Positions 60,028 to 64,000 of a stretch of 64,000 nt of DNA are shown in pieces. The position numbers and the translations under genes are program-made. The DNA is from Deltaproteobacteria bacterium (GTDB taxonomy: Bacteria; Bdellovibrionota; Bdellovibrionia; Bdellovibrionales; JAMPXM01), in assembly GCA_017302795.1 (NCBI GenBank), contig JAFLCB010000016.1, positions 1 through 64,000 of the forward strand, given 5' to 3'. The notes beneath the pieces are model-generated. The model saw nothing but the letters and a program-made list of their open reading frames with translations, had not been told where the DNA came from and made no database searches. Numbering within the stretch: the first letter of the stretch is position 1; each line of letters starts with the position of its first letter.

Positions 60028-60876
60028 GTGTTCAACGGATTGACACGATTGGCGTGGGGCCTCTGGGCCTGCGTTATAATTTCTTCGACAATATTGGCGT
60101 CGACTGGCGTCGCCAATGTTTTCGGCTCGGATCATCGACAGGATTTGTTCCCTGTCCCAAGTCATTTGCAGCCGATCGGAGTGCTTCGTTCCCTTCCGGA
60201 CGATGGAAACTGGGGCACTGCATTTTTGGTTTCTGAGTGCCATATCGTGACGGCCTTCCACGTTGCGTTTCCCGGTCATAAGCGGCCAGGATTTCGACCA
60301 AGTGCAAAGATAAAATCTCGGTTCAATGTCGGGAAAAGTGCCGACATGAAATCGTCCTTTTTTCAGTCAAGCTCAGTGGCAACGCCGGTCAGCTGGGGAA
60401 AATTCAGTTCGAAGGATTACCGTGGCCTACTAGGTGATTGGGCGATCTTAGAGCTTGATGATTGTCTTGGACGAATTTACGGAAGCTTGAGCCTTACTCC
60501 AAGTCTCCAAAGTCATATGGTTCGAGGCACCCAGATTTCGTTCGCTGCTTTTCCGCGGGACCGCCAGGAAGTCGCCGGAATTTCTTGGGAAGAGCACTGT
60601 TCAATCAAAGATTGGGGCCCAGGATCTTTGGTTGGAATCGACTGCGGAGTTCGGGATGGAGCCTCAGGAGGTCCGTTATTGGAGCGTATTGAAGTCCCTG
60701 ACGGGCTTGGCGGGACGTCCGTGGGCTTTGTTGCGGTAGGAATCGCGATTCGCGAACTACGGCCTCGAGATGGAATAATCGACGAGTATCATCCTAAGTT
60801 CCGAAACATTGCACTTCTGTCTGAGGCATTTGATTCGGAACTTAGAGTGGTTTTAAATCGGTTAAAACGAAACTAA
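60028..60876 (+). CDS. Exported trypsin-like serine protease
   Basis: A 282-residue protein (GTG 60028). A hydrophobic signal (GLWACVIISSTILASTGVANVFG) is cleaved near ANVFG. The triad is readable: His in GTAFLVSECHIVTAFHVAF near 78, Asp in GDWAILELDD near 138, and Ser in CGVRDGASGGPLL near 214, with the GxSGGP signature. Substitution of the usual TAAHC by TAFHV marks a non-classical S1 group. Six Cys could form three disulfides. It would act in the periplasm or outside, for example on prey or host protein. It stands alone between the CNB protein and a broken barrel gene whose 3' end it overlaps. Confidence 0.82.
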   Translation: MFNGLTRLAWGLWACVIISSTILASTGVANVFGSDHRQDLFPVPSHLQPIGVLRSLPDDGNWGTAFLVSECHIVTAFHVAFPGHKRPGFRPSAKIKSRFNVGKSADMKSSFFQSSSVATPVSWGKFSSKDYRGLLGDWAILELDDCLGRIYGSLSLTPSLQSHMVRGTQISFAAFPRDRQEVAGISWEEHCSIKDWGPGSLVGIDCGVRDGASGGPLLERIEVPDGLGGTSVGFVAVGIAIRELRPRDGIIDEYHPKFRNIALLSEAFDSELRVVLNRLKRN

Positions 60877-61375
60877 AAGCGCTGCATCCCAGCGAGATTC
60901 GCCATAGGCGGCGCTCGTGATTTTGCGATTCACGACAGTGTCGGTCCATTCTAATCGCACCGTGAATCCGTCCTCGGGTGTGTAATTAGATGCAAATCCG
61001 TATGTTTGTGCGTCTGCATAGCCGCCGCCGTTGGGATCGCTGTCGACAGTTTCAAACCTTCCGCTCATTTTAAATTTTTCATTCACTCGGTAGGTTGCAA
61101 TCAAGAGGAGTGCGGAACCTGGATCTTCGCGATCAGTTGTAGGTTCGGTAAGGATATTTTTTCGCGGGCTTGTTACAACGGAGTATTGTAAGTCGAGATC
61201 GAAAGCACCAAACGTCGTTCCCGCAAGAAAATCGAAGAGCGAACGTTGACTTTGACCGTTGCTGAGATCCGCTACCGCACGCGTTAAGAATCCAAACTGC
61301 CCACGGAAAAAAGAATTCGAATAGCCTAATATTCCGCCGTATTCCGTTGATGAATCGGCGGGCTTCGAGGAGTTT
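60862..61375 (-). pseudogene. 3' remnant of an outer-membrane beta-barrel protein
   Basis: On the minus strand one frame is open from 61375 to the stop at 60862, about 170 residues, but it contains no ATG or ribosome site, and the upstream in-frame TAA (61376-61378) touches the start of the next plus-strand gene. The peptide is strongly barrel-like: alternating strands such as LLLIATYRVNEKFKMSGRFETVD and FTVRLEWTDTVV, turns rich in Asn/Asp/Gly, and a terminal WDAALLVSF ending in Phe as a BamA signal. The N-terminal half and signal peptide are missing, so it is almost certainly a truncated porin-type gene. A short product from TTG 61104 is unlikely to be useful. Confidence 0.7.
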
Positions 61376-61378
61376 TAA

Positions 61379-63271
61379 GTGTTGGTCGATGTAAGTCAGA
61401 CAGACATTTTAAAGCTCGCAGAAATAATTCGGGCGGAGACCGGCAATCAAGTTGCAGAGAAAAATCATTCAATGATCATTTCACGGATTCGAACCCGTCT
61501 TTTGAAGTTGACGCTCAAAAGCATGAGTTCCTATTGGACATATTTTGCCGAGCACGAAACTGACGAGCGCGAAGTGCTTCGAAACCTCATGACTACTCAC
61601 TACACGTTCTTTTTTCGCGAGTATGTCCATTTCGAAATTTTGCAGCAGTGGATTCATAGCAATGCTCAGAGGCTTAAAGACCGATATTTGAAAACTCAAA
61701 CGCCGGTGCGGATTTGGTCGGCTGCCTGCAGCCGCGGCCATGAAGTCTATTCGCTTGCGTCCTTCTTAGAACTCGAGTTGAAAACAAAGTATAGTGTTCC
61801 ATATGAAGTTCTGGGGTCGGACATTGATTCCGAATCTGTGCAACACGCAGGAAATGGTGTCTATCCATTGAAAGAAGTGAATACGATTCCTCAAGCTTAC
61901 TTAAGTCGATTTTGGAAGAAGGGAACTGGAGCAGTAAAGGACTTTGCTGCTGCACATCCGACGATTCGCGAAAAAGTAAGTTTCGAAGTTGTGAATTTAC
62001 TTGAGTTAAAATCATGGGCGAACCCCCATTTATTCGACGTTATCTTTTGTCGAAATGTGTTTATCTATTTTTCCGAAGAAAACGTCCGTCAGATCGCGAC
62101 ATCGCTTGAACAGCGCCTAGATCCAGCGGGCCTTTTCGTTTCTGGTCTTTCGGAACCAGTGCGGTTTCCCGGTTGGGACCTAAAGACAGTTGGTCCCTCG
62201 TGCTACTCACGTCAAAGTGAGGTTCGAGGCTCGAAGCCAGCGGAAGTCACCACTTCATTAACTGAGAGGACGACCCAACCTTCGCCTGTTCAGATCACCG
62301 CCGCTGGTCGGTATAAGGTATTGTGTGTCGACGATTCGAACACAATTCAGATTCTAATGAAGAAAATTTTTTCGATGGATCCTGATTGTGAGCGTGTTGA
62401 TTCGGCGTTGAATGGTCGAGAAGCGCGAGAAATGTTGGACAAGAATCAATATAGCTTGATCACACTTGATATACACATGCCCGAAGTGAATGGAATTGAG
62501 TTCCTAGAAACTCTTTATGATCGTAAAACGGATCCGCCGGTCATAATGGTTTCTTCCGTCAATCGCACGGACCTTGATCTTGCTACCAAGTCGGTCTCTT
62601 TAGGGGCATTCGACTATGTTGAAAAGCCCGCTATGAACAACCTGCAGAAGAGTTCACAAGAGATTTTGACCAAAGCCAAAATGGCAATACGAACAAAAAC
62701 CTCTGTCGCGGCGGTCGGCGAAAGCGGCTTTGATGAATCAATTGGTCAAAAGATTGTGGTGCCAGACGCGTCGATGTGCTTGCGTTTGGTTGCGGTATCA
62801 CTAGGAAGTGCCAAAGAAGTTGCCTTGGCTGAGCAAATTGTTCGCGGCCAAAGAGCAGAGTATCGGTCCCCGCCAATTTTAATATGGAATGTTGATGGGC
62901 CGGTTCCGTCACACGTGATGGAGCAGGTTCTAAGATGGACTGACCGGTCTGTTTCGGAAATTCGCGCCGGAGGCGTTTTGAAACCAAACGGCGTGTTTCT
63001 CGCTTCAGGACATGAAATCGCAGGCATTCTTGAAAAGAGTCGAGCGAAGACTTTGTCTCTTCAATTCGTGACCGTGCCGCAGCAGTTAGAATGGCGAGCC
63101 TTGCTGGGGCGCTTTGTACTTCGTCAAGTGTTGCTGGACGAGTCGCATATCGAACGAAAAGGTGATTTAGAAAGAATGCTTGGGCTTACGTTGAGCGATA
63201 TTTCTCCAGCGACGAGCTTTGCTTCTCTCTCGGTTGAGTTTTTCGCTAACTTGCGAAAGGCAGCTGCTTAA
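61379..63271 (+). CDS. CheR - receiver - degenerate CheB fusion
   Basis: A 630-residue cytoplasmic protein (GTG 61379 with GAGGAG upstream). Residues 1-275 are a CheR methyltransferase: N-terminal helical domain, TTHYTFFFREYVHF, SAM motif IWSAACSRGHEVYSLASFLE, LGSDIDSESVQHAGNGVYPL, and FDVIFCRNVFIYFSEENV. A receiver follows (about 310-430) with VLCVDDSNTIQ, Asp in LITLDIHMPEVNGIEFL and Lys in YVEKPA. The end (about 455-600) aligns by eye with the CheB esterase: VAVSLGSAKE keeps the Ser of GASTGG, but the His position reads WNVDG and the LTGMGxDG Asp motif is lost. It likely methylates chemoreceptors and uses the CheB part for binding only. Confidence 0.8.
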   Translation: MLVDVSQTDILKLAEIIRAETGNQVAEKNHSMIISRIRTRLLKLTLKSMSSYWTYFAEHETDEREVLRNLMTTHYTFFFREYVHFEILQQWIHSNAQRLKDRYLKTQTPVRIWSAACSRGHEVYSLASFLELELKTKYSVPYEVLGSDIDSESVQHAGNGVYPLKEVNTIPQAYLSRFWKKGTGAVKDFAAAHPTIREKVSFEVVNLLELKSWANPHLFDVIFCRNVFIYFSEENVRQIATSLEQRLDPAGLFVSGLSEPVRFPGWDLKTVGPSCYSRQSEVRGSKPAEVTTSLTERTTQPSPVQITAAGRYKVLCVDDSNTIQILMKKIFSMDPDCERVDSALNGREAREMLDKNQYSLITLDIHMPEVNGIEFLETLYDRKTDPPVIMVSSVNRTDLDLATKSVSLGAFDYVEKPAMNNLQKSSQEILTKAKMAIRTKTSVAAVGESGFDESIGQKIVVPDASMCLRLVAVSLGSAKEVALAEQIVRGQRAEYRSPPILIWNVDGPVPSHVMEQVLRWTDRSVSEIRAGGVLKPNGVFLASGHEIAGILEKSRAKTLSLQFVTVPQQLEWRALLGRFVLRQVLLDESHIERKGDLERMLGLTLSDISPATSFASLSVEFFANLRKAAA

Positions 63272-64000
63272 TGATACGGGTAGCCGCGTCGCCATCGGTC
63301 TACTTTTTCAAGTGGATGAAGTCGGGAGAAGGCGGTCTGGCAGACGGCGACTTAAGGCTTGTCAATCATTGTATCCTGTTCGCAGTTGATGCTGAAAACG
63401 CGGTGACAGGGTTCACTTACTTTGAACCGCGAAGCTTGGATCACATGTTTTTCGATCGCCTCGCAAGACGAATCGAAAGTCCTGATTCGGTCGGTCTAAG
63501 TTTCAATCTCATTATTCCCTCATTTATTTCGCACCGATTAGGACCAGAGGTCGCCGGAAAATTTGCAGATCGACTGAAAGTTCAGATTTCCTCCTACGCC
63601 CAAATTTCCTCACGCAGTGGCAAGCTTCGTATCCGCGACCGAGCGCGGGTCGTTTGCGTTGATGATTCGCCACTGTTGCTAAAGGTATTGCTAAAATCTT
63701 TTAGGTCAATGGGATCATTTGATGTTGTAGAGCAAATATCTGATCCTCGTAAAGCCGTGGAAGCTATTTTACGTTTGAAGCCAGATTTAGTAACAATGGA
63801 CATTCAGATGCCTGGCATGACTGGAGTCGACGTCGTGCGGCGACTTAAGGACGCTTCATTTGGTGCGCCGATAATTATGGTTTCGAGTGTAACGCTCGAA
63901 GACGGTGGCTTAGTCTTTGAGGCATTGAACGCGGGTGCGTTTGAATATGTTCAGAAGCCAAGCCACGACGAATTTCAAGACTTTGAAAACGAGCTATTGA
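63271..64000 (+). CDS. CheD-like (tentative) plus receiver protein, cut by window edge
   Basis: Starting at ATG 63271, which shares a base with the previous TAA, the frame is open to the window end (243 residues seen). Residues 1-125 are unusual; the NHCILFAVDAENAVTGFTYFEP segment and the late SGKLRIR strand recall CheD receptor deamidase, with the catalytic Cys possible but the His replaced. A receiver starts at about 128 (VVCVDDSPLLLKVLLKSF, Asp in LVTMDIQMPGMTGVDVV, IIMVSSVTLEDGG, Lys in YVQKPS) and looks most like CheB's. A CheB esterase could follow beyond the edge. Coupled to the CheR fusion, it forms a second chemotaxis-adaptation gene. Confidence 0.65.
   Translation, partial: MIRVAASPSVYFFKWMKSGEGGLADGDLRLVNHCILFAVDAENAVTGFTYFEPRSLDHMFFDRLARRIESPDSVGLSFNLIIPSFISHRLGPEVAGKFADRLKVQISSYAQISSRSGKLRIRDRARVVCVDDSPLLLKVLLKSFRSMGSFDVVEQISDPRKAVEAILRLKPDLVTMDIQMPGMTGVDVVRRLKDASFGAPIIMVSSVTLEDGGLVFEALNAGAFEYVQKPSHDEFQDFENELL

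What the first reader, a model, noticed from the sequence alone, without database searches (positions are those of the whole stretch)
61379..64000. CheR-receiver-degenerate CheB fusion coupled to a CheD-like/receiver protein
Methyltransferase, receiver and a catalytically broken esterase in one chain, in the order CheR first, are not the usual CheB-CheR fusion. The His and Asp of the esterase triad are lost while the fold pattern persists. The next gene overlaps by one base and starts with a domain that may be a degenerate CheD before a CheB-like receiver. This looks like a re-engineered receptor-adaptation module in which opposing enzymes share phospho-signals.
Basis: partly seen in the sequence, partly recalled or inferred. 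Interest (0 to 1): 0.65.

Follow-up and report, generated by a model that had tools for sequence, protein, structure and literature searches.

The report
Methyltransferase fused to broken esterase pair
Many Bdellovibrionota (the phylum that includes predatory bacteria) reset their chemical sensors with an unusual gene pair: a receptor methyltransferase joined to a phosphorylation switch and a dead copy of the opposing enzyme, next to a second protein that carries the working opposing enzyme behind what is probably another dead enzyme domain.

Summary
Gene 1 (61379-63271, 630 aa) is CheR + CheB-type receiver + a CheB-fold domain without the catalytic triad. The fold is supported by profile comparison, and by a pLDDT-88 model whose best PDB matches are all four CheB catalytic structures (Z 12-13). 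The N-terminal domain has a CNF1/CheD/YfiH-like fold without the Cys/His dyad; a degenerate CheD is likely but only moderately supported. The pair is a conserved operon partner of CheA-CheW-(MCP). The pseudo-esterase occurs in 97 of 369 searched phylum genomes and is under purifying selection. Two genomes encode both proteins as one chain. The same genome also carries a CheR-REC-intact-CheB paralog; Bdellovibrio has the reciprocal CheD(intact)-REC-dead-CheB. Most likely mechanism (inferred): CheA phosphorylates both opposing adaptation enzymes, and the dead domain gates CheR and/or docks it on the active CheB. In this genome the pair has lost its own CheA, CheW and receptor. New variant of a known kind.

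The parts
61379..63271 (+). Gene 1: CheR-REC-pseudoCheB, 630 aa, GTG start
   Evidence: ORF; domains; orthologs of 604-667 aa across the phylum
61391..62164 (+). CheR methyltransferase domain (residues 5-262). Residues equivalent to Salmonella T94, R98, A123, E129, D154, N212, N231, Y235 are kept (T76, R80, A115, E122, D148, N206, N226, Y230). The pentapeptide-binding R197 aligns to Ala
   Evidence: Pfam CheR 1.1e-41; alignment to 1AF7/1BC5; positions; R98, D154, Y235 and R197 roles from PMC5907407
62312..62674 (+). CheB-type receiver 1 (residues 312-432), phosphoacceptor D364 with D318/D319, S393, K416
   Evidence: Pfam 6.2e-23; NCBIfam CheB model 1.2e-30 over residues 312-559; positions
62714..63268 (+). 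Pseudo-CheB domain (residues 446-630): CheB fold, His and Asp of the triad lost, conserved C-terminal PATSF..S.E(F/Y) motif (610 onward)
   Evidence: hhalign prob 94%, score 49.3 vs null max 21.7; AF2 pLDDT 88.4; Foldseek 1chd E 4.6e-4; VIA Z 12.0-13.2 for 6ymz, 1a2o, 3sft, 1chd; triad counts
63271..64000 (+). Gene 2, cut by the window end (continues to 64695 in contig C16; 474 aa): N-terminal domain - REC - intact CheB methylesterase
   Evidence: contig extension; Pfam CheB 1.1e-56; triad S290/H316/D412
63271..63642 (+). N-terminal domain of gene 2 (residues 1-124), probable degenerate CheD: CNF1/CheD/YfiH-like fold, C34 near the Cys position, His position not His
   Evidence: hhalign vs CheD; AF2 pLDDT 80; fold matches NTAN1, 2f9z CheD, CNFy, YfiH; residue counts
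63646..64000 (+). CheB-type receiver 2 (residues 126-245 in the full protein), D131/D132, D177, S206, K229
   Evidence: Pfam 1.9e-20; positions
60862..61374 (-). C-terminal remnant (about 164 aa) of a porin-like gene that in relative G052 lies divergent to the HPt-CheA-CheW-MCP genes; marks the place where CheA, CheW and MCP are missing
   Evidence: BLASTP 35% identity over 166 columns, E 2e-32, to residues 364-528 of the G052 porin; no other piece in this genome

Best explanation
The two genes encode a receptor-adaptation pair of a Bdellovibrionota chemosensory system. Gene 1 is a CheR methyltransferase that has acquired a CheB-type receiver and a CheB domain that can no longer be an esterase. 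Gene 2 carries the working CheB esterase behind its own receiver, plus an N-terminal domain that is probably a dead CheD. SHOWN by sequence or model: domain order, CheB fold of the dead domain, loss of its triad, intact CheR and CheB catalytic residues, intact phosphorylation residues in both receivers, conserved operon with CheA and CheW, single-chain versions in two genomes, purifying selection on the dead domain. INFERRED: CheA phosphorylates both receivers, so methylation as well as demethylation is set by kinase output. The receiver and pseudo-CheB of gene 1 act as a phosphorylation-dependent gate on CheR and/or as the docking surface that holds CheR next to the active CheB of gene 2 at the receptor array. 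The CheD-like domain of gene 2 serves binding (to receptor or partner), not deamidation.
For: Anatomy and fold. Both receivers keep all acceptor residues. Operon: 46 loci with CheR-REC-pseudoCheB, 37 with CheA and 37 with CheW in the fetched stretch. Physical coupling: both proteins are one chain in L065 (1107 aa) and L112 (1130 aa), with a CheD-like linker domain between. One origin is likely: CheR domains of this architecture, with derived forms, form one side of a 100/98-supported branch. The dead domain is conserved: 97 of 369 genomes, dN/dS 0.09-0.10 in the two pairs where dS was measurable. The genome's other CheR protein is CheR-REC-intact CheB, so the dead domain is plausibly a former esterase.
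Against: No activity, phosphorylation or binding was measured. Gating, docking and receptor binding cannot be told apart from sequence. The pseudo-domain evolves faster than CheR (dN 0.14 vs 0.03 in L044/L047). Some members have lost it (R-rec forms L061, L062, L075, L080), so it is not strictly needed. In this genome the pair has no CheA, CheW or MCP of its own.
Confidence: 0.6

Rival explanations
1. The degenerate domains are evolutionary leftovers of fused CheB and CheD copies, tolerated but without function; CheR and CheB work as in E. coli.
For: Both domains evolve faster than their neighbours. The pseudo-domain is shortened or lost in several lineages (R-rec proteins L061, L062, L071, L075, L080). 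R-rec-rec-B forms lack it altogether (L052, L053, L059).
Against: Open frames of about 600-665 aa carry it in nearly all of 97 genomes spread over many families. dN/dS in the pseudo-domain is 0.09-0.10 where measurable. A motif is held at P 98%, T 92%, S 98%.
Confidence: 0.17
2. The pseudo-CheB domain has a new catalytic or ligand-binding role of its own rather than a scaffold role.
For: A strongly conserved C-terminal motif (PATSF) and a conserved Glu (E588 in the window) are not CheB catalytic residues.
Against: No conserved polar set resembling an active site emerged: only R, P, G, E, P-T-S-F columns exceed 75%. No enzyme other than CheB stands out in the fold searches.
Confidence: 0.1
3. 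Gene 2's N-terminal domain is not a CheD descendant but an unrelated small domain of similar fold.
For: No Pfam CheD match in any of 36 members even at E 10. Single sequences score no better than shuffles against a CheD HMM. Profile score drops to the null maximum when three sequences are removed. Top VIA row is RadC, Z 5.3.
Against: Colinear end-to-end alignment with CheD (124 columns). Model matches NTAN1, CheD, CNFy and YfiH, all one fold class. Intact CheD-REC-CheB neighbours of CheR exist in relatives (L072, L076, L135, L144). Transitional sequences L049 and L051 look CheD-like by eye.
Confidence: 0.27
4. In this particular genome the pair is a remnant: its kinase, coupling protein and receptor were deleted and it is on the way out, or it now serves the other locus's CheA.
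For: Only the C-terminus of the flanking porin remains and it abuts gene 1. All CheA, CheW and MCP matches are on contig C2. Same-genus G003 keeps CheA-CheW-MCP-gene1-gene2.
Against: Both genes are intact with all catalytic residues. The contig ends 115 bp after gene 2, so assembly loss cannot be excluded.
Confidence: 0.5

Closest known systems
CheB methylesterase (REC + catalytic domain; Salmonella 1A2O/1CHD)
   Same: Receiver type, linker, fold of the C-terminal domain of gene 1; gene 2 is a full CheB with triad
   Different: Gene 1's esterase domain has no triad and sits behind CheR; gene 2 has an extra N-terminal domain
CheR methyltransferase (1AF7)
   Same: Both CheR subdomains, catalytic residues
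   Different: Fused to a receiver and pseudo-esterase; the classical enzyme has no receiver. Motif TGEE reads RGHE here (E129 equivalent kept)
CheR fusions and CheBR hybrids known from other bacteria (CheR-TPR, PMC3447774; CheB-CheR hybrids from general knowledge)
   Same: CheR in a multidomain protein
   Different: Order CheR-REC-pseudoCheB, dead esterase, coupled partner gene; no TPR
CheD deamidase (2F9Z, CNF1/YfiH-like fold)
   Same: Probable fold of gene 2's N-terminus; intact CheD-REC-CheB fusions exist in relatives
   Different: No Cys/His dyad; not detected by Pfam
CheD(intact)-REC-degenerate CheB of the genus with handle g20 (probably Bdellovibrio; L130 and others)
   Same: CheB-type receiver with dead esterase (triad N-S-D or N-A-D)
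   Different: The live enzyme at the N-terminus is CheD, not CheR; reciprocal to gene 2

Membership tests
CheR (gene 1, residues 5-262) | SAM-binding CheR domain with catalytic residues | tested here: met
   Pfam 142.8 bits vs cut-off 27; residues equivalent to R98, D154, Y235 kept
CheR (gene 1, residues 5-262) | methyltransferase activity on receptor glutamates | not testable with these tools
   needs an assay
CheB methylesterase (gene 1 C-terminal domain) | CheB catalytic fold | tested here: met
   VIA Z 12.0-13.2 to four CheB structures, next unrelated 10.1
CheB methylesterase (gene 1 C-terminal domain) | Ser-His-Asp triad | tested here: not met
   His and Asp equivalents lost; S 20/60, H 1/60, D 1/60 in the family
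CheB methylesterase (gene 1 C-terminal domain) | Pfam CheB_methylest match | tested here: not met
   no match at E 10
CheB methylesterase (gene 2) | REC + catalytic domain with triad | tested here: met
   NCBIfam CheB 336.6 bits vs cut-off 293; S290, H316, D412
CheD (gene 2 N-terminus) | Pfam CheD match | tested here: not met
   0 of 36 members at E 10
CheD (gene 2 N-terminus) | catalytic Cys and His | tested here: not met
   no His at the aligned column in the 47 of 48 listed; no Cys at the aligned column in the 45 of 48 listed; alignment uncertain
CheD (gene 2 N-terminus) | CNF1/CheD/YfiH fold | tested here: inconclusive
   NTAN1, 2f9z, CNFy and YfiH among top rows but Z 4-5
Receiver domains (both) | DD, acceptor Asp, Ser/Thr, Lys | tested here: met
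   D318/D319/D364/S393/K416 and D131/D132/D177/S206/K229

The most novel reading that the evidence does not exclude
A phylum-wide chemosensory design in which the methyltransferase itself is a phosphorylation-controlled response regulator, and a pseudo-CheB domain physically couples it to the active CheB, so that one kinase sets methylation and demethylation in push-pull within one complex. A second dead enzyme (CheD) serves as docking domain.
Probability: 0.3. Interest if true: 0.72.

Novelty: new variant of a known kind. Interest (0 to 1): 0.52.

Why it matters
In the textbook chemotaxis circuit CheR is constitutive and only CheB is controlled by phosphorylation; models of perfect adaptation rest on that. 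Here CheR carries its own CheB-type receiver and a conserved dead esterase across a phylum that includes predatory bacteria. If the receiver controls CheR, feedback acts on both arms of adaptation, which is directly testable. The set of relatives (CheR-REC-live CheB, CheR-REC-dead CheB, dead CheD-REC-live CheB, live CheD-REC-dead CheB, one-chain versions) is also a clean natural series of enzymes turned into regulators. Pfam does not name either dead domain, so annotation pipelines miss them.

Tried and rejected
Complete triad in gene 1: rejected. CheD by single-sequence HMM: no better than shuffles (best real 5.4 bits, best shuffled 10.3). CheD by Pfam: none. PDB by profile of gene 2's N-terminus: nothing meaningful. 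Mutual exclusion of canonical CheD and the pseudo-domain: not seen, several genomes have both. Gene tree of the live CheB domains: too weakly resolved to date the fusion (quick tree). Literature: searches of open-access papers for CheR/CheB/CheD fusions, Bdellovibrio chemotaxis enzymes and pseudo-CheB found no description of this architecture; subscription papers were not searched, so novelty in print is not proven. PMC8067016 only lists cheB and cheR as present in Bdellovibrionota.

Full report
WHAT IS THERE. Gene 1 (61379-63271, + strand, GTG start, 630 aa) has CheR at residues 5-262, a CheB-type receiver at 312-432 and a C-terminal domain at about 446-630. Gene 2 begins at 63271 in the overlap TAATG. 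The window cuts it, but the contig (G000:C16, 64810 bp) completes it to 64695 as a 474-aa protein: N-terminal domain 1-124, receiver 126-245, full CheB catalytic domain 283-471. The triad of gene 2 is intact (S290, H316, D412). CheR keeps the residues aligned to Salmonella R98, D154, Y235 and other SAM contacts (residue roles in PMC5907407; further contacts from general knowledge). Both receivers keep every phosphorylation residue.

THE DEAD ESTERASE. Pfam does not recognise the C-terminal domain of gene 1, though NCBIfam's CheB model runs from the receiver to residue 559. A profile of 60 relatives aligns to a CheB profile with 94% probability. The score of 49.3 compares with a maximum of 21.7 in 100 column-shuffled controls. 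AlphaFold2 gives pLDDT 88.4, pTM 0.82. Foldseek's only match at E < 0.001 is 1chd, and VIA-align ranks the four CheB catalytic structures first at Z 12.0-13.2, the next row being 10.1. At the aligned triad positions the family keeps Ser in 20, His in 1 and Asp in 1 of 60, against 71 of 71 for all three in intact CheB domains of the same set. In the window protein the Ser is S474 while the His and Asp positions are changed. The intact set was chosen by score, so it is a reference, not a frequency estimate.

THE N-TERMINAL DOMAIN OF GENE 2. Evidence for a degenerate CheD is positive but moderate. hhalign gives 76% with the receiver start included. Without it the score is 23.9, above all 100 shuffled controls (maximum 17.9), but it falls to 17.8 when three CheD-like sequences are left out. 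Pfam finds no CheD in 36 members, and single sequences do not beat shuffles. The model (pLDDT 80) is matched by human NTAN1, T. maritima CheD (Z 4.1, 104 residues), a CNF domain and YfiH proteins. NTAN1, CheD, CNF1 and YfiH share one fold class and NTAN1's best DALI match is CheD (PMC7022378). The Cys and His of CheD are not kept. Relatives with CheR followed by an intact CheD-REC-CheB (L072, L076, L135, L144) provide a plausible ancestor.

DISTRIBUTION AND CONTEXT. The pseudo-domain profile finds 97 of 369 Bdellovibrionota-phylum genomes at E <= 8e-14, nearly all in frames of about 600-665 aa (my count from the listed rows). The named scan shows the pair in Bacteriovorax, Halobacteriovoraceae, Bdellovibrionales and Oligoflexia bins; phylum assignment of these comes from record titles. 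Of 46 loci with CheR-REC-pseudoCheB, 37 carry CheA and 37 CheW in the fetched stretch. The CheR domains of this architecture and its derived forms lie on one side of a 100/98 branch, apart from stand-alone CheR and CheR-REC-CheB. In L065 and L112 both proteins are one chain with the N-terminal domain in between. Other derived forms are CheR-REC-REC-CheB (Fluviispira L059, L052, L053) and CheR-REC without the pseudo-domain (L061, L062, L075, L080). Pairwise dN/dS of the pseudo-domain is 0.09-0.10 in the two pairs where dS was not saturated, and 0.08-0.33 for the gene-2 N-terminus, so both are constrained but looser than CheR, REC and CheB.

THIS GENOME. It has two CheR proteins: gene 1 and a CheR-REC-intact-CheB protein on contig C2 beside CheA, CheW, two MCPs and CheY-like receivers. 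CheW-domain and MCP matches occur only on C2, and no CheD is found. Directly upstream of gene 1 lies a 164-aa remnant of a porin on the minus strand, 35% identical to the end of the porin that in G052 flanks HPt-CheA-CheW-MCP-gene1-gene2. Same-genus G003 keeps CheA-CheW-MCP-gene1-gene2. The simplest reading is a deletion that removed the porin's start and the HPt-CheA-CheW-MCP genes; misassembly or sequence lost beyond the contig end (115 bp after gene 2) is not excluded. The window's CheR groups with members of another family of the order (G087, G052, L021), so horizontal transfer is possible but was not tested.

MECHANISM. Shown: the parts, their conservation and their genomic coupling. Inferred: CheA-P phosphorylates both receivers. 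In known CheB the receiver packs on the catalytic domain and phosphorylation opens it (established for 1A2O). Keeping that pair of domains behind CheR while losing catalysis suggests a switch that gates CheR or binds the partner CheB. The one-chain versions favour physical coupling. I put about 0.6 on this regulatory or docking reading as a whole and do not claim to separate gating from docking.

NOVELTY. No description of this architecture was found in the open-access library. All parts belong to known families, so this is a new variant of a known kind.

Noticed in passing
L130 (G092:C1:504799) and 23 similar loci; L176:7665-9215: The genus with handle g20 (probably Bdellovibrio) encodes CheD(intact)-REC-CheB with a dead triad (N-S-D in 22, N-A-D in 2), in a cluster with CheA and CheW: the reciprocal of gene 2.
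   Followed up: partly
L065:1692-5012 and L112:136-3525: Both proteins of the pair occur as one chain of 1107 and 1130 aa; frames of 1109 and 1181 aa in G271 and G018.
   Followed up: partly
window 60862-61374 (-): Truncated porin-like gene abutting gene 1; marks the missing HPt-CheA-CheW-MCP genes.
   Followed up: yes
L014:14678-16485: In G052 the CheA of this cluster is split into an HPt gene (182 aa) and a kinase without HPt (410 aa).
   Followed up: no
L059 (Fluviispira multicolorata), L052, L053: CheR-REC-REC-CheB proteins of about 790-810 aa, lacking both degenerate domains.
   Followed up: no
window 62714-63268, residues 610-625 of gene 1: The best conserved element of the pseudo-CheB domain is a C-terminal P-x-T-S-F-x-x-x-S-x-E motif unrelated to the triad; possible partner-binding site.
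   Followed up: no
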